The notes beneath the pieces were generated by a model. It ran no database searches. It was not told where the DNA came from and worked only from the letters and a program-made list of their open reading frames with translations. From Strigamia acuminata (lineage: Eukaryota; Arthropoda; Chilopoda; Geophilomorpha; Linotaeniidae), in the NCBI GenBank assembly GCA_949358305.1, contig OX442319.1, positions 14,074,001-14,138,000 of the forward strand: a DNA stretch of 64,000 nt, read 5' to 3'. This document shows positions 54,590-64,000 of the stretch, piece by piece; positions within the stretch are counted from its first letter, which is position 1; every line of letters starts with the position of its first letter. Position numbers and translations under genes: made by a program.

Positions 54590-55050
54590 GAGCACACAGT
54601 TGGGATTGATATAATCTTTATTGATAGTTGTCTAGGGGTTGCGCATTCTCACCGCGTTATCGCTTAGGTCACTGGGTTGCCTTGCAGCAACCCAGCCCAG
54701 TCAAACACTGACCACGTAGTCAAAGACCACTTGGGCAGCATGGTCTGTTATCATTGCCTGCCGCGCATTACAGCATGGCGATCGAGTCGCCTCAAGCCAT
54801 TTCGGACTTGGGAGCGATCTTGCCTCTTGTTGTGATGACAGTCACCATCGTCACCTTCTCTCTAGAATTCTCACAACTAGTCAGCATGAACTGTCTCCAA
54901 GATGGCAATCAAGCCAAAAAGAGACCTTTCAGAATCCTTTGTCCTGATTGGTTGGTTGCAATCAGGACTCAGCTCCAACGATACGTCGTAGGAGCTGCTG
55001 AGGATCCTCTACTTAATGTCGCCAGTGCTGTGGTACATGAGTTTGACAAA
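54590..55050 (-). mobile_element. LTR-like fragment
   Basis: Resembles 4123-4595 along most of its length: TTGGGATTGATATAATCTTT, GTCTAGGGGTTG, CTGACCACGTAG, CGCCTCAAGCCATTTC. On the minus strand it contains AATAAAG followed by CCCAACTGTGTGCTC, as near an LTR poly(A) site. Ends not resolved; the right side runs into the minisatellite at 55035. Confidence 0.55.
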
Positions 55051-55965
55051 GTTAAAATGACACGAGTTTGACAAAGTTAAAATGACACGAGTTTGACAAA
55101 TTTAAAATGACACGAGTTTGACAAAGTTAAAATGACACGAGTTTGACAAAGTTAAAATGACACGAGTTTGACAAAGTTAAAATGATATACACGAGTTTGA
55201 CAAAGTTAAAATGATATACACGAGTTTGACAAAGTTAAAATGATATACACGAGTTTGACAAGTTAAAATGATATACACCAGTTTGACAAAGTTAAAATGA
55301 TATACACGAGTTTGACAAAGTTAAAATGATATACACGAGTTTGACAAAGTTAAAATGATATACACGAGTTTGACAAAGTTAAAATGATATACACGAGTTT
55401 GACAAAGTTAAAATGATATACACGAGTTTGACAAAGTTAAAATGACACGAGTTTGACAAAGTTAAAATGATATACACGAGTTTGACAAAGTTAAAATGAT
55501 ATACACGAGTTTGACAAAGTTAAAATGATATACACGAGTTTGACAAAGTTAAAATGATATACACGAGTTTGACAAAGTTAAAATGATATACACGAGTTTG
55601 ACAAAGTTAAAATGATATACACCAGTTTGACAAAGTTAAAATGATATACACGAGTTTGACAAAGTTAAAATGATATACACGAGTTTGACAAAGTTAAAAT
55701 GACACGAGTTTGACAAAGTTAAAATGATATACACGAGTTTGACAAAGTTAAAATGATATACACGAGTTTGACAAAGTTAAAATGATATACACGAGTTTGA
55801 CAAAGTTAAAATGATATACACGAGTTTGACAAAGTTAAAATGATATACACGAGTTTGACAAAGTTAAAATGATATACACGAGTTTGACAAAGTTAAAATG
55901 ATATACACGAGTTTGACAAAGTTAAAATGATATACACGAGTTTGACAAAGTTAAAATGGCACATC
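55035..55965. repeat. 25/29-bp minisatellite, about 33 units
   Basis: Unit CACGAGTTTGACAAAGTTAA plus AATGA (25 bp) or AATGATATA (29 bp). The 25-bp form makes up the left edge and appears singly at about 55446 and 55705; the 29-bp form dominates. Units CACCAGTTTG mark two positions (55275, 55621), suggesting an internal duplication of a multi-unit block. It lies just 3' of the DEG/ENaC gene. Confidence 0.95.
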
Positions 55966-56096
55966 AGTTTTTAAATGATAAAATTTTACAATCGCTTGTT
56001 TTGTATTTGCTTGTGTTTATAAAGGTTAAAAGATTTAAGTAAACATCTTTATAATTTAGGAGAAATAGCAGAAAGCATTTTCCGATTATAATTCTG

Positions 56097-59000
56097 TTAA
56101 ATCAAATTATTTATGACAGAAAACGTCGAGAGGCCGGTCAGAATACCAATTACAGAACCAATATTGGAAAACAATTTTGTGAGCGAAACTGTTCTCTCTT
56201 CTGCAATCACTTCTCTAACGTTTTCTGGAATCATGTACGTAACACGTGAACGTCCATATCCTAATTCGTCCTCTGCCACTGCTGGATGGAATATGGTTTC
56301 TATGCAGCGTGATTTGCACCGACAGTCTTTCTGAAAGTTTGTCTTCATTTGAGTTTCAAAATATGTTTTTTGCATTGCTTTAGCCTCTTCTAATTTAGTG
56401 CAAAGCGATAAATTGCTATTCTCCATAAATGGTAATCTATGAATTGTTGAAATTAGAATACTGTACATGCATATACTGAGAAAAAAGTGAATTTCCAAAC
56501 ATTTACAAGTTGGAAATTTATATAGAAAATTTAAATTCACTCTCATGAGAAAATTTGAATTTAAATAAAAAATTAGTTTCAGCTAACAGTAAGTGTATTT
56601 AAAATTTAAAAAATGGAAAGTAGTATTATTTTTATATTGGAAATATATTAGAAATATATAGTGAAATTTCAAAATTTCTTAATTGAAAATGTTTTGTAAC
56701 TTTTTGTAAAAAAATCCTACGTGAACCCCAATGAAAAGTAAGTACTGAAACATTTTGCCAATTTAGCTCAAGCTGTTGGAATTATTCAAACATCCTGCAT
56801 ATTATATTTTAATGTCCGTCGTACATATCGAATTAAGTGTATAAACGTTCATAGAATGTTCAGTATACATATATTTGATATACAGGGTGAACATAAAGTC
56901 TATCACTATCGTAAATATTTCTGAAAGTGCTGACAATTCATCTGATCTAATGATGGTAAAGTATTAAAGTTGGGTAGGGCAATCTTTTGGTGACCCGAAA
57001 TTTGACTTTGGGATGTTCCTTCAAGGTCATTGGGAAATTATCTTGGAAACCGTTAGAGATAGACAGAAATTTCCAATTGTAAACTTGTAGAGCAGCATTT
57101 GTTTAGTCTAAAAATGACTAATTCTCAAATCTTTTGTACTAAAAAGTTTTAAGAAAATCGCAATTGAAAAGTAGACACAAGTCAAAGGATAACATGGCCA
57201 AAATTGAAAAAGTGTCAAAAACGTGCTGATTAGACGTAAAATGACCCAAAAAATTGATTCCCCTGGTCGGAATTTGCAAATCTGGCACCGTTGCAGAGAT
57301 ATGGGCAGAAAACTGAATTTTTTTATGACACTTTCTTTTCAAAACTACTTTTTCAATTGCAATTATCTTAAAAATTTTTAGTACAAAAGATTTGAGATTT
57401 GAGATTTGAGATGTAGAATATTCTTATAGTTTCCCAATCTACTTGCTTTACGAATACATGCAATACAAGTTCTGGCATCTACTCTAGCAATACACAGAAG
57501 TTTTAAATCTTATTGCTCTTAGTATTTTCTCTGAATTAAAGTTTGCAGTTGGTGCCATTCATTCAGTAAACTAAATGCTCTAGAATAATGTCATAATGTA
57601 AATGCTGACCTGCATGAAATATTCAGTCGGGATGCATAACAGTTCTGTTCACATTCTGATACTTGCTCGTTGTCACCACACGGGCTTGTCGGGGTATCGA
57701 CTCGAACAATCTAGAATGAACAAATGTGTTCTAAGCACTGTGCACAGTTTTCTGATTCAATTATAATTTACCGTTTGACGGGAAATATGAATTGCGACAT
57801 TATTTCCACCGCTTATGTAGAAAATATGTTTAGGGTGAAAAGATTGATTTTGTGGCAGAATAAAGTGCTACAATGCATCAGAAGTTGAAATAGTTTATTT
57901 CAAAAGTTCAAAATATCTCACTGGCTGAAGTTTGTTGATTTTCCACATTTTATAAAGGTCTACCCAGATGCTACCCGGAACAAACTGTGCTTCTTCTAGA
58001 AGATTTAGAAGCAGAAAGAAAAAATTATTCCATATGACGTGTTTATGATGGGAAAAAGTGGAATTGTTGCGGGTAGCAACTCTTATTAAATTTGGAATAA
58101 TTAAGTGTTACTTTGGAAAGTCGATGGATCGAAACTGATTTCGATTGGATGGTACAGAAAAGAACAAGTACGCAATGGATTACATCGAAACATGCTATTA
58201 ATATGCTATTATTTCCATCCCTTTAAATCAATAGTTGCCTCAACCTATTTCCATTGTGAGTCAACAAAGTAACCCTGGTGGTCAAATATGGCGCAAGCAC
58301 AAATTCCCACTGCATCCGTGATTGATCAATTAAGATCAAGCATGGTAAGCACCCATTGCCAACACGTACAAAACTTTTGCTTGAGTACTCGTGTTTTGGT
58401 GTTGAAACAAAAGGCGATCACACATTAAAAAAAACATATCTGCTGGTGTTTTACAGTGCTGGTGTGACGATTTGGGTGACGTGCTAACTTGTATCGAACT
58501 TTACTTGTAGCCGGGTGAAAAAAGTGTAGTAAAAAAGCAGCCGGGTAGAAAAATGGATACGTGTCCATGTCATGCTTGGTTCATGCTGCAATTAAGCAAT
58601 ATTTTAAGGTGCACAGGTTCCTCAATCGAGATACATTATCAGCGTGGTCAGCACGCATTGCCAACATGTGCGTTAACTCGTTTTGATGTTGTGACAATAT
58701 CAAACACATTATTATGAAGATATAAAATGTATCCGCTAGTCTTTTACAGGGCTGGTGCATTTTGGGTCGATTCTTAGGGCAACGTGTGTTAGAACTTTAG
58801 GTGGCTAAACAAGTTGAAAGATGGCATAGAATAATGTCAAATTTTTGCTACTTTTCTTGAAAACACTGCATAGTCCAAACATTGTTGACAGAGTGGATAC
58901 AGTAACAGCATCTACAAGTAGTTTGTGAGTCTGTAAAAAACATAAAAGTATGCAAACAAATTCACCTTTGAATATTCATTTGCTTACATTCCGCTGCAAT

Positions 59001-62000
59001 TCCATGATACGGTCGTGATAGTATTTGAAATTGGATGAGACGTTCCATAATTGTAATGGCTTGTTAGCGAATTTTGATGATTGATGAAGCAAATCGATGA
59101 GTTGGTAATCTTTGCTATTAGCATTCAATTTTTTCGCTAAATCCTTTTTAGCTTTTAATACTTTCTTATTTTCTTCACATTCAATAATTTGTGGAAAATG
59201 TATGATTTCGTCCCTTTCGAGTCTAACAGTTTGATAGACTGGATATTTCAGAAACTCGTCCATCAAATCGTACATGTAATAAACTGAAAGAGAGAGCAGC
59301 AATAATACTACTATGGTTTTCATTTTCAATAGTTTCTTGACAAATGATTGTTTTTGCGTTTTCTGTTTCTTTTCGAGTATCGTTTGTATTCTCTCTTTCA
59401 ACTGGCAATTTCCTTTAGTTGTTTTGTAGGACTTGACGAAAGGTGTTTTGCAGCAGTGGACAAATATTTCAACGAGTGTTAAGCATGACATGCCGAAATA
59501 GAGACCGATGGTTCCTCCGATATCACACAATAGATCGATGAGATCGTAAGAGTGACGTTCTTGCAACATTCGAACATAATTATTCACAGCATATACTTGT
59601 AGAACATCTTCTTTATAATACTCTGTATTGAATGAAGTACTTTGATGTGTTACATCGCATAAATCGAGACATTTGCATTTCTGAATGGTGTTTACCGCCT
59701 CAAATAGTACTGTTAAAGTGATGAACTGCCTTTTAATTTCAGTTTGGCTGAATTTTTGTAGATTTTGTAGTTCATAATATAAATCACTGAAACAACATGA
59801 ACACAGTGATTTTCTCAACTTGAGGACAAATGAAAGCCCCTAAACCTTTATCCTAACATTTGAACAAGCTACACAACTCAGTACTTGTACAGTACAGCTC
59901 CTTGCCAAAATGGAATATTGGTTAAACTATGTTTAAGGTGCGCGCCATAAGTATGGAATAATCAGTTTTATTGTAATATTTTTTTTTACGCTTCATCTAG
60001 AATCAAACCAATTTTTTAATCCATGTATTTTGTCCTTTGAATTCGTTTAAAATTAACAAGTTTATAATTTTTCTAGAAAAATAAATTTGGCAGTGATTTT
60101 ACACGAAAATGGGGGTGACATAAGTATGGAATATTTCACGTTTGATGCAAAAAAATGAATAAAATGAATATCACATAACATGCCTTTGTCTGATTAGTTA
60201 ATCAGTGAATATGTCATCAATTTTCTGCCATTTTTGAATTGTATTACTTGCTATTTTTTTATTTTGAAGCAATCCCTTGTACAAAACTTGCGACCACTGA
60301 GGAAATCGCAGAAATATGGCAATTAAAGGCACTGGGGCTCGCCAAACAACAAATTGATAGAAGATTAGGAAGAAATTTAAAGAAATTAGTCAATTGCATC
60401 AAAAATTCTAATCAAAACATGAAATCCAAATGTGAAAGCAGACAGGGAAGACCAAAAGTGACCATGCAGTGAGCATTGTCCTGCTGAAACACCCATTTAT
60501 TGCCACAATTTTCCATCCAAATGGCAATAAATGCATGTTCAACATTTCCTTATACTTCTGTGAATCTTTCCAATCTTTCATTATTATGATGTTTGCCTGT
60601 AATTTTTGCCCGAATGTCACCCAAACCATCACTTGATTCTGCCCACTGAGAAAACTTCTCTGCTCTCCTTAAATCTTGCCACTTATTACACTAACCATTC
60701 AGACCATCTAAGTTGAACTGTATTTTGTCTGTAAAAAGCACTCACAAGTCAGTTTCATGATTTGGTCCAGGGCAGCTTGGTATTAGTCTAATCAGAACAC
60801 TTCAATTTGTGGGCTTAACCACAGTTGTACAGCTATTTTTTGATAAAGATGATCACAATTGTTTAGTCTGCTTTGAATTGTTTGCTAAAGACACAATTAC
60901 ATCTACATGTGTGCAAATTTCATTTGCAGACAACAGCAGAGTCAGTGCCAGGCACAAAATATTCTTGTGAACTTGCTGCATGGTCACTTTTGGTCCCCCC
61001 TTCTTGCTTCCATATTTGATTTTCATCTTTGGGTTAGGACTTTTGATATAATTGATTAATTTCTTCCTGATCTTCTATGGATTTGCTGTTTGGAGAGCCC
61101 CAGTGCCTTTAATTGCCATATTTCTGCGATTTCCACAGTGGTCGGAAGTTTTGTACAAGGGATTGCTTCAAAATAAAAAATAGCAAGTAATACAATTCAA
61201 AAATGGCAGAAAATTGATGACATATTCACTGATTAACTAATCAGACAAAGGCATGTTATGTGATGTTCATTTTATTCATTTTTTTTCATCGAACCTGAAA
61301 TATTCCATACTTATGTCACCACCATTTTTGTGTAAAATCACTGCCAAATTTATTTTTCTAAAAAAATTATAAACTTGTTAATTTTAAATGAATTTAAAGA
61401 ACAAAATACATGGATTAAAAAATTGGTTTGATTCTAGATGAAGCGTAAAAAAAAATATTACAAAAAAACTGATTATTCCATACTTATGGCGCGCACCTTA
61501 TAACCGTTTTTTACTACAACTTCTTAAAGGTAACAAAATAAATAAATAAATAAATGATGGTTTTTAGGATACGACTCTACCATCATTTAGCTGTGGTTTG
61601 GTTAAAATTGAATTAAAAAATATTGATTCAATTTACCAATGTAACAATGCGGAATAGTGAGATAAAAAACATTTATTTCTTGAAACTATAACAAAATCCA
61701 AACTGTAATTATAATTAATGCAACACGATGATCCACATTAACTAAGTTATAATTTCAACTAATAAATGTTTTGTATATCACTTTAACTCATTGCTCCATT
61801 GTCACAAACAATTGCATATTCTCGTATTTTGTCATTTTGTAAATCCAGATTACTCAAAATGGAATCATAATCATACTCAAAATACACTAAACGTTCTAGG
61901 AACGTTTATACCCGAGTCGTACGGTAACTAGGGTTTGATGCTGTGACCGGCTGCCCGCTCAGTCCGTTCACTTGCCTGCAACACACGGCGCTTCCACGGC

Positions 62001-64000
62001 TCTCGCGCACCTCGTGTGTTTCTCGCGCGCACCTGTTGCGGACCCCCGCACCAGGTGGAGCTGATGGTCCTTGGCCCGGCCAATTGGGAACCGGAAGTGC
62101 CCCTTCCGGAAGTGGTGGGCCCCGCAGAGGCCCAGAGAGTTCTCTAACTTCCAGCATGGCGAACGGTCGCTTCCACGATCGCTCTTCCACGCTGGCGGCA
62201 ATGATGAATCCGATTGGCGTAGCGACTCTGTCGCCCGCCGGGACTTGATAAGTCCGAGTTCCCCATGTCCGTCCTGCGTTCTCCGTGAACGTAGCGGCGA
62301 CATGGCTAAACGGTATTCCGACCACGTGTGTCATGGCGGCCATTGGCCACCGTGCCACGTGGTCTTGTTAGGGACGGCTGTTCGCAGCCGTCGCATTGGG
62401 AAATGCACTGGGAGACACCACATCATACCCCTAGACATAATAAAGCTTACCTTAAACTAAACTTGTGTCTCTTGTGTATTTCGGAGTGAATTCTATCGTG
62501 TGTGTTGTGTCCAGCGCCTCGTGGCTCTCCCCCGACCACGTGGCGACCGTCCAAACACTCACAATGCATGTTACAAGTACGATGCGATGCGCGGGAATGT
62601 TTGAATAATTCCAACAAAAATTGTAGCCAAATAATGGTAGAATTATATCCTAAAAGTATTGTTTATTCGTTTATTTTGTTACGTTTAGAAAATTGTATTA
62701 AAAGAGGTGATGAACTTAGTTTTGACCATTATTCCATTTTTTTTGCCAAGGAGTTGTAAAGTACAACACCTGTTGACATCCAATGGATATCTGTGTTTGG
62801 ATATGCACATTTTGTCATAACGACACTTTACAGTACCTGGCGTTTAGCGTTTTCCTGAAACAAGCTCGTAAGCAGTTCTCTAAGTCAACTTCATTGCCAC
62901 ACGGTTTTCGTTTCAGGTTAATGAAGTGATACTAAAACGAGTTTAGAAAGAAATATTGAATTAATTTTAGCACAATTGTTACTTAGAATAAACAAACAGC
63001 GCTAATGTTTTGAAAGTTGTAGATCTAAACATTACATGTTTGACTGCTAAGACAGTAATATCTTATTTTTTAAACTTTAAACTTTGAACTTATTCCTTAC
63101 TTTCTGCGTGATTATTCCAGCACGGTTCATTTTGCGATTACATGGCATTCTGGTTAAAACAGTTTTGAGTAAATGATCCACGATCGGTGAGGCATCTATT
63201 AATACCTTTAAATTAAAACAATAAATGACAATTGTTACAAAAATAGGCGATTAGTATAGTGGCGTATTGGATGCACTCGCAGACTAAAAACTTCCTCTTA
63301 ATAACGGATCAAGTTTGTTTTCAATGCAAATTAGTGTAAATTAATGCAATTCATTTAGCTAATCAAATACTTACAACAACACTCCAGCATTTTTTGGGGA
63401 GTTTGAATTTTATTATCATCTTGTAATATTGATTTCCAAATTTCCAAACAAATGCTAAAGAAAATGGATTTTAAAATTTAAATGAACCAATTTTTGTAGA
63501 CTTACGACTAGAAACTTGTGTCACTGGGTAAAGGGCAGGGTGCATTTTAACTGTAAGGTTAGCACGTGATTTCCCCTACAAAGATTACATGAAATTACAT
63601 TTTATATTAAACTTTTATTTTGCAGACAAAAGAATTTTTTCAAAAAAAATGAAAATGATTTACCGCTGCAAAGTAGGCATCGGTTATGAAGTTAGAAGGT
63701 CTGAGATATTTTATTACGTCTGAGTAGTTATATTTTGACGACCATGGATTAGCGTGCGCATAATAGCATTGGTCTTTTTTATTTATGAACTTATTAAATT
63801 CTTGCGTGGTGTGTGGATAAAAATAAACAAATGGCATCCTAGAAGCATCTGTCGTTTCAACTAAGTTGGCGTCAACTGCTGTTGGCTCAGACAAGTAACG
63901 CATTATTCGGTCTGCGCTTTGGTAAACACAAGCTGCTATATTCATCAAGAGTAGAGTGCAAACTAGTACACGTAGAATCTTTTTCTTTCCCGAAATTTTC
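56097..64000 (-). CDS. Tandem two-module DEG/ENaC sodium channel (partial)
   Basis: Amiloride-sensitive-type cation channel. Exons: 63664-64000 (cut by window end), 63506-63575, 63375-63454, 63101-63205, 62837-62931, 58988-59786, 58852-58930, 57922-57995, 57772-57867, 57610-57710, 56097-56436; about 725 codons, every junction in phase. Module A: TM1 (ILRVLVCTLLLMNIAACVY), SEPTAVDANLVE and MPFVYFYP, cysteine pairs PCGNEVDLENCLRAC and CKCLDLCDVT, TM2 DIGGTIGLYFGMSCLTLVEI with a GxS filter (GMS). Without a stop, the same exon continues through about 47 mostly basic residues into TM1 of module B (MKTIVVLLLLSLSVYYMYDL, YPVYQTVRLERDEIIHFPQI). Module B has PCGDNEQVSECEQNC, DCRCKSRC, and TM2 NIGSVIGILTGLSTFSVINN (filter GLS), stopping right after. 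Topology fits a cytosolic linker. The closest family is uncertain (pickpocket-like). Confidence 0.85.
56884..57415. mobile_element. Truncated mariner-like element with internal inverted repeat
   Basis: Starts CAGGGTGAACATAAAGTCTA after TA. CTCAAATCTTTTGTACTAAA near 57124 pairs with TTTAGTACAAAAGATTTGAG near 57378, but the right terminus is missing. It lies in the last intron of the DEG/ENaC gene. Confidence 0.6.
59936..61498. mobile_element. Tc1-like transposon, palindromic defective copy
   Basis: AGGTGCGCGCCATAAGTATG at the left and its complement at the right, with TA on both flanks; 1563 bp. The inverted similarity continues more than 500 bp inward on each side and includes the start of the transposase gene on both arms. 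Confidence 0.9.
60255..61160 (-). pseudogene. Tc1-like transposase remnant, duplicated at both ends
   Basis: Minus strand from about 61150: a helix-turn-helix start (EIAEIWQLKALGL) follows, then decayed sequence, a DDE-domain piece with MVWVTFGQKLQANIIIMKDW and, in another frame, FQQDNAH (the second catalytic Asp region) near 60490. On the plus strand at 60268-60475 the same helix-turn-helix start recurs (TTEEIAEIWQLKALGLAKQQ, then GRPKVTMQ). Frameshifts and the inverted duplication make it non-functional. Confidence 0.8.
61942..62563 (+). mobile_element. Solo LTR, 622 bp, GC-rich
   Basis: Starts TGTGACCGGC and ends CACTCACA (TGTGA/TCACA inverted pair). ATGC lies on both flanks (61938-61941 and 62564-62567), a 4-bp target duplication. 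AATAAA at 62439-62444 followed by a CT/TG-rich stretch fits the R-U5 region. It is far more GC-rich than its surroundings. No internal retroelement genes are present. It sits in the DEG/ENaC intron 62836-59787. Confidence 0.88.

What the first reader, a model, noticed from the sequence alone, without database searches (positions are those of the whole stretch)
56097..64000. Concatenated DEG/ENaC channel: two subunit modules in one polypeptide
DEG/ENaC/ASIC channels are normally trimers of single two-TM subunits. Here the exon 58988-59786 has no stop between TM2 of module A (GLYFGMS filter) and TM1 of module B (MKTIVVLLLLSLSVYYMYDL), joined by about 47 mostly basic residues. All eleven exons keep phase, both modules keep the paired-cysteine blocks and a GxS filter, and the membrane topology works out (linker in the cytosol). 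The gene runs past the window, so a third module is possible, which would make a covalent pseudotrimer. I know of no well-described natural DEG/ENaC concatemer.
Basis: partly seen in the sequence, partly recalled or inferred. Interest (0 to 1): 0.88.

Follow-up and report, generated by a model that had tools for sequence, protein, structure and literature searches.

The report
Centipede channels with two fused subunits
A centipede gene, one of a very large family, encodes two sodium-channel subunits as one continuous protein, which is surprising because such channels are normally built from three separate one-unit chains.

Summary
On the minus strand an 11-exon gene model without a break (56097 to 64128, i.e. 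128 bases past the window) encodes 767 residues: two DEG/ENaC modules, A and B, joined by a 42-residue basic linker inside one exon (59786-58988). Each half passes Pfam ASC's cut-off. Intron phases are the same in A and B (0,1,0,0,2), pointing to tandem duplication and fusion. No third module was found. The genome is Strigamia acuminata. The family is large: 144 scored loci carry the fused exon, 139 without a stop; 84 have first, fused and last exon in order, none has two fused exons in a row (capped lists). The linker is under purifying selection among close copies; four Strigamia maritima gene models read through it. The nearest solved structure for each module is the centipede thermal receptor BRTNaC1, a single-module trimer. 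My searches found no report of a natural DEG/ENaC concatemer. Expression and assembly are untested; how a two-unit chain fits a trimeric channel is the open question.

The parts
63664..64000 (-). exon 1: N-terminus, TM1 and first ectodomain part of module A; continues to L009:128 (ATG, in-frame TGA upstream)
63506..63575 (-). exon 2 (module A)
   Evidence: paralogues
63375..63454 (-). exon 3 (module A)
63101..63205 (-). exon 4 (module A)
62837..62931 (-). exon 5 (module A, cysteine-rich; counterpart of exon 10)
58988..59786 (-). exon 6, the fused exon: end of module A with TM2, 42-residue linker, TM1 and first ectodomain part of module B, no stop
58852..58930 (-). exon 7 (module B)
57922..57995 (-). 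exon 8 (module B)
57772..57867 (-). exon 9 (module B)
57610..57710 (-). exon 10 (module B, cysteine-rich)
56097..56436 (-). exon 11: end of module B with TM2 (SNIGSVIGILTGLSTFSVINNLI) and stop TAA

Best explanation
The gene encodes one four-pass membrane protein made of two DEG/ENaC subunits in series (N-terminus in the cytosol, TM1-ectodomain-TM2 of A, basic cytosolic linker, TM1-ectodomain-TM2 of B, C-terminus ending just past TM2). It arose when a gene of the centipede BRTNaC1-like kind duplicated in tandem and the last exon of copy one became continuous with the first exon of copy two. Shown: the unbroken frame and splice sites, both modules, the same series of intron phases, a large family with the same order of exons, selection on the linker among close copies, read-through models in a second species. 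Inferred: the protein is made as one chain and works as a cation channel of sensory cells, with A and B next to each other in a pore and A supplying the canonical pore helix. Most likely in my view the tether fixes an A-B pair in a trimer whose third seat is filled by another subunit (a single-module partner, or one module of a second A-B chain). Rapid change in the first part of exon 6 (thumb-like part of A, by position) and the large copy number suggest ligand recognition that differs between copies, that is, a chemoreceptor-like family.
For: Model of 767 aa, 11 GT-AG exons; a second full model, 774 aa, same 11 exons and phases, C8:11841 kb. Pfam ASC: A 57.7 and B 49.1 bits, cut-off 23.6. 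A against B: best local match E 2e-9 in a two-sequence comparison, 71 of 336 aligned residues identical, phases 0,1,0,0,2 in both. Fused exon in 144 scored loci, all 144 matches spanning TM2-linker-TM1, 139 without a stop; last exon in 150 scored loci, 150 without a stop; first exon in 150, 146 without a stop; 84 ordered triplets among 144. Linker dN/dS 0.28 among 15 close copies, TM2 0.21, TM1 0.24. S. maritima proteins P0001-P0004 contain TM2 of A, linker and TM1 of B in one chain. BRTNaC1 is the best PDB match for A alone (8.5e-8) and B alone (7.2e-11). Engineered ASIC concatemers exist (PMC10329638, PMC8871370: titles, abstract starts and term counts in the listing only).
Against: No RNA or protein evidence was available. 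A's Pfam match covers only residues 235-381, and a fragment of exon 1 scores 13.6 bits, under the cut-off. Linker dN/dS among the five more distant copies is weaker, 0.62, above TM2's 0.30. In the A/B alignment the first three intron positions lie about 10-12 columns apart; only the last two coincide closely. B's TM2 is short and the usual acidic residue after the filter (recalled) is N in this copy, D in C8:11841. The HG motif before TM1 (recalled) is not visible in A or in the linker. Two modules do not divide into three seats, so the assembly is guesswork. AlphaFold models of pieces failed (mean pLDDT 31.7 and 45.7). Of six S. maritima models, P0005 lacks the linker and the first part of TM1 of B, and P0006 lacks TM2 of A.
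Confidence: 0.65

Rival explanations
1. The two halves are made as separate single-module proteins (alternative ends and starts, or cleavage after translation), so the fused frame is only a chromosomal arrangement.
For: Some methionine lies in the linker or at the start of TM1 in 18 of 20 loci; 2 of 20 have a poly(A)-signal-like hexamer between linker and TM1 end; two GT dinucleotides in TM2 are conserved in all 20.
Against: No stop in the exon in 139 of 144 copies; the methionines are not at one place in all subfamilies and 2 of 20 loci have none; no AG is conserved in all 20 in the linker; the linker is constrained as protein among close copies; by topology the linker is in the cytosol, away from secretory proteases (inference).
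Confidence: 0.07
2. Two or three A-B chains assemble without any other subunit: three chains as a twin of trimers (A3 plus B3), or two chains as a pseudo-tetrameric pore.
For: Both modules keep a GxS filter in the two full models; no gene with three modules was seen (capped); no dedicated single-module partner was identified, though none was sought. One paper argues for ASIC1a tetramers at the cell surface (PMC4529235, title and abstract start in the listing only).
Against: Solved DEG/ENaC channels are trimers (recalled); PDPNaC1 of a centipede is a homotrimer (PMC12714832, abstract and passages), BRTNaC1 is described as trimeric (PMC12804983, passage). Nothing here tests assembly.
Confidence: 0.25
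3. The fused proteins no longer conduct; they are ligand-binding or dominant-negative partners.
For: B's TM2 is short and divergent; A's N-terminus is divergent (13.6 bits to ASC for a fragment of exon 1, under the cut-off).
Against: A keeps a canonical TM2 and GMS filter with low dN/dS; at least 144 loci keep the fused exon, 139 of them open.
Confidence: 0.15
4. Assembly or collapse error that removed a stop codon or joined two genes.
For: None found.
Against: HiFi assembly, QV 59.6 (PMC10556566, passages); the same exon in 144 loci on seven contigs and in gene models of S. maritima from another project.
Confidence: 0.01

Closest known systems
BRTNaC1, broad-range thermal receptor 1 (PDB 8YMR and related entries); [quoted passage not shown]
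   Same: Best match in the PDB for both modules separately; DEG/ENaC; centipede antenna (PMC12804983, passage)
   Different: One module of 431 residues per chain, trimer; the matches are weak and partial
PDPNaC1, proton-dissociation-permeated sodium channel of the same centipede (PDB 9JF7)
   Same: DEG/ENaC of centipede antennal neurons; weak match to both modules (E 6.6e-4 and 1.5e-4)
   Different: One module of 421 residues, nine exons, homotrimer (PMC12714832, passages)
ASIC, ENaC, FaNaC and pickpocket channels
   Same: ASC domain, two TM helices per module, GxS filter (ASIC, FaNaC and Pickpocket 26 appear; ENaC recalled)
   Different: One module per chain
K2P, two-pore (TPC) and four-domain Nav/Cav channels (recalled)
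   Same: Natural fusion of channel subunits into one chain
   Different: Tetramer-type pores in which the number of fused modules divides four; here two modules meet a family of trimers

Membership tests
DEG/ENaC (ASC, PF00858) | ASC profile over the curated cut-off in each module | tested here: met
   A 57.7 (stretch 235-381 only), B 49.1 (nearly the whole profile), whole 93.8 bits, cut-off 23.6
DEG/ENaC (ASC, PF00858) | two TM helices flanking a large cysteine-rich ectodomain | tested here: met
   hydropathy peaks at 51-69, 361-383, 424-447 and 745-767; 16 cysteines in A (TM and linker ones included) and 10 in B. Two weaker peaks inside the ectodomains (204-222, 543-561) were not counted as TM
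DEG/ENaC (ASC, PF00858) | GxS selectivity filter | tested here: met
   GMS in A, GLS in B (translation)
DEG/ENaC (ASC, PF00858) | HG motif before TM1 (recalled) | tested here: inconclusive
   read by eye only, not seen in A or the linker; no profile test made
DEG/ENaC (ASC, PF00858) | one module per polypeptide, as in the described members (recalled) | tested here: not met
   two modules in one frame; this is the variation, not a bar to homology
DEG/ENaC (ASC, PF00858) | trimeric cation channel | not testable with these tools
   no structure or recording; models of pieces failed
BRTNaC1-like centipede DEG/ENaC | closest relationship to BRTNaC1 | tested here: inconclusive
   best PDB hit for A and for B, but no tree with other centipede channels was built
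natural channel concatemer | one continuous frame with selection on the linker | tested here: met
   constraint clear among close copies, weaker among five distant ones
natural channel concatemer | one transcript and one protein | not testable with these tools
   no RNA or protein data at hand

The most novel reading that the evidence does not exclude
A family of well over a hundred natural two-subunit DEG/ENaC chains that departs from the one-chain-one-seat trimer: two chains forming a pseudo-tetrameric pore, or three chains forming twin trimers, used as a rapidly diversifying sensory receptor family of geophilomorph centipedes.
Probability: 0.25. Interest if true: 0.92.

Novelty: new variant of a known kind. 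Interest (0 to 1): 0.82.

Why it matters
Natural fusions of channel subunits that I can recall all occur where the module number divides a fourfold pore. A large, selected family of two-module chains in a family of trimers makes an assembly question directly testable: which seats do A and B take, and who sits in the third? It would also be a natural counterpart to the engineered ASIC concatemers, and points to a large, apparently undescribed receptor family in centipedes: the main text of the S. maritima genome paper has no occurrence of sodium channel, amiloride or degenerin (term search).

Tried and rejected
Third module upstream: rejected (in-frame stop before the ATG; no ASC-like frame seen by eye in the listing of the next 10 kb, L009; no E6-E6 neighbours within 20 kb). 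An acceptor between that stop and the ATG was not formally excluded. Structure prediction of S. maritima P0005 (collected) and of the fused exon (collected) gave mean pLDDT 31.7 and 45.7, so no fold search was made. Homologues beyond Strigamia: three protein searches gave only S. maritima proteins; the search needs shared five-residue words and the candidates were capped, so absence elsewhere is not shown. Literature: ten searches were made; those aimed at natural fusion or concatenation were 19, 24, 54 and 90, with 91 on engineered concatemers; I recognised no paper on a natural DEG/ENaC concatemer in the listings. Subscription papers are largely missing from the library. The paralogue at C8:14414 kb lacks an AG before exon 10 in my reading and was not counted as intact. 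The tally of 199 distinct loci rests on capped lists and a chaining rule and is only indicative.

Dropped rows: the dN/dS work used 20 loci, those of the 144 for which DNA was held, among them L018 with one stop. Pairwise values are pooled without a tree. Some of the 144 rows have identical scores and may be recent duplicates or unmerged haplotypes.
Full report
What is there. The minus strand of the window from 64000 to 56097, with 128 further bases in L009, holds an unbroken gene model of 11 exons coding for 767 residues. All junctions are GT-AG; the ATG has an in-frame TGA five codons upstream; the stop is TAA at 56097. Exon 6 (59786-58988) contains the end of module A with TM2, a linker of 42 residues (13 basic, 2 acidic), and TM1 with the first part of the ectodomain of module B, in one open frame of 287 codons. 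Whole-protein ASC score is 93.8 bits; module A alone scores 57.7 and module B alone 49.1, cut-off 23.6; A's match covers only residues 235-381, B's runs over nearly the whole profile. A fragment of exon 1 alone reaches 13.6 bits, under the cut-off.

Origin. A and B align over 336 residues with 71 identities, and the best local match has E 2e-9 in a comparison of just these two. The intron phases in A are 0,1,0,0,2 and in B 0,1,0,0,2, which is what a tandem duplication of one gene would leave. In the low-identity A/B alignment the last two intron positions coincide closely, while the first three lie about 10-12 columns apart. The last intron of each module has phase 2; by my reading of the printed DNA, five single-module ASC genes of the same genome (L001, L003, L004, L006, L007; 5 of the 8 held) have an acceptor at the matching place in the same phase. 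In 8 of 8 single-module last exons (L001-L008) the frame ends 7 to 20 codons after the TM2 match. In exon 6 it does not end but runs into the next TM1.

A large family. A six-frame search of the genome with the 266-residue exon scored 144 loci of 1383 candidates; all 144 matches span TM2, linker and TM1; 5 of 144 have a stop, 139 none; identity 44-88% apart from the query itself. The last exon gave 150 scored loci of 1159 candidates, none of the 150 with a stop. The first exon gave 150 of 527, 4 with stops. Placing these on the map, 84 of 144 fused exons have a first exon as the nearest of the three types upstream and a last exon as the nearest downstream, same strand, within 20 kb; the other 60 lack one or both in these capped lists, or have a neighbouring gene's exon nearest; 0 of 144 has another fused exon as a nearest neighbour. 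Two modules, not three, is therefore the family's plan as far as seen. A second gene, at C8:11841 kb, was modelled from ATG to stop: 774 residues, 11 exons, same phases. A third, at C8:14414 kb, lacks the AG before exon 10 in my reading. Two more (C8:13954 and C8:13851 kb) match in exons 1-10 as far as read; a last-exon hit lies downstream of the second of these on the same strand, outside the DNA fetched, and none is listed near the first.

Selection. In 20 loci whose DNA was held, pooled pairwise dN/dS in the linker is 0.28 among 15 close copies, 0.215 between these and L027, and 0.62 among five distant copies; TM2 of A has 0.21, 0.17 and 0.30. So the constraint is clear among close copies and weaker among distant ones. 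All 20 loci stay in frame through the linker, with length differences of one or two residues. In the other two forward frames 20 of 20 loci have stops in the TM2-linker-TM1 stretch. Some methionine is present in the linker or at the start of TM1 in 18 of 20 loci, but not at one place in all subfamilies; two GT dinucleotides in TM2 are conserved in all 20, but no AG in the linker is; 2 of 20 have a poly(A)-signal-like hexamer. By contrast the first part of exon 6 shows pN/pS of 2.6, 1.2 and 1.0 in the first three sliding windows (the first rests on a low pS of 0.057), and one window in the ectodomain of B reaches 1.1; the ectodomain part of A as a whole has dN/dS 1.0 among close copies. I read this, tentatively, as relaxed or diversifying selection on ligand recognition.

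Organism and second species. C1 of the genome is 66,985,994 bases long, the exact length of the longest scaffold of the Strigamia acuminata assembly, a 237.5-Mb HiFi assembly with QV 59.6 (PMC10556566, passages); the held copy has 157 contigs and 237,517,015 bases against 158 scaffolds and 237,534,282 in the paper. Six S. maritima proteins in UniRef match, all named uncharacterized. P0001, P0002, P0003 and P0004 run through TM2, linker and TM1; P0005 goes from TM2 of A to the later part of TM1 of B without the linker and on to the end of B with its TM2; P0006 lacks TM2 of A. The best match of P0002 in S. acuminata by score is 54% identical and none of the 136 listed exceeds 58%, so the family seems to turn over fast. 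The S. maritima genome paper does not use the words sodium channel, amiloride or degenerin in its main text (PMC4244043, term search).

How it may work. Both modules resemble best, among solved structures, BRTNaC1, which PMC12714832 describes as a thermal receptor of Scolopendra subspinipes mutilans and PMC12804983 as trimeric (passages); PDPNaC1 of the same animal is a homotrimer of 421-residue chains. A keeps a canonical pore helix with GMS; B keeps GLS but ends right after TM2. I infer a cation channel with A and B in neighbouring seats, tethered on the cytosolic side. How a chain of two fits a pore of three is not known; a third partner, a second chain with one idle module, twin trimers or a pseudo-tetramer are all open. 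I favour the first two together at perhaps 0.5 and the last two together at about 0.25; a chain that does not conduct, or is not made as one chain, takes the rest.

Novelty. Ten literature searches, four of them aimed at natural fusion or concatenation, listed no paper that I recognised as describing a natural DEG/ENaC concatemer; the library lacks most subscription papers, so this is not proof. The family belongs to DEG/ENaC by profile and filter; it differs in carrying two modules per chain.

Limits. No transcripts, no protein, no usable structure model, no tree, no sampling of other centipedes.

Noticed in passing
window about 55040-55970: Tandem array of a short unit (tatcattttaactttgtcaaactcgtg and shorter variants) directly downstream of the gene
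   Followed up: no
window about 59930-61490: Intron 5 holds a long imperfect inverted-repeat element (seen by eye) whose ends read like ...gcgccataagtatggaataatcag; it looks like a decayed DNA transposon
   Followed up: no
window about 61900-62620; also upstream of the exon in L006: GC-rich interspersed repeat inserted in intron 5; by eye a similar stretch lies upstream of the last exon of the single-module gene in L006
   Followed up: no
L009:3079-7203 and L009:8300-10000: Gypsy-type retroelement frames and then an alpha-2-macroglobulin/TEP-like gene on the plus strand upstream of the channel gene (named from the translations by recall, not searched)
   Followed up: no
window 59786 to about 59655 and paralogues L013-L026: Hypervariable first part of exon 6 (module A), pN/pS about 1.0-2.6 among 15 close copies, while TM2 and the linker are conserved
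   Followed up: partly
C8:14414 kb (L027 and L032): Paralogue with otherwise matching exons lacks the AG before exon 10, perhaps a young pseudogene
   Followed up: partly
G000 contigs C1, C4 to C11: Besides the fused family the genome has many ordinary ASC exons: 93 scored of 2094 candidates
   Followed up: no
G000 contig C1: Some rows have identical scores at different places (for example C1:52772263 and C1:52783365), which suggests recent duplications or unmerged haplotypes
   Followed up: no
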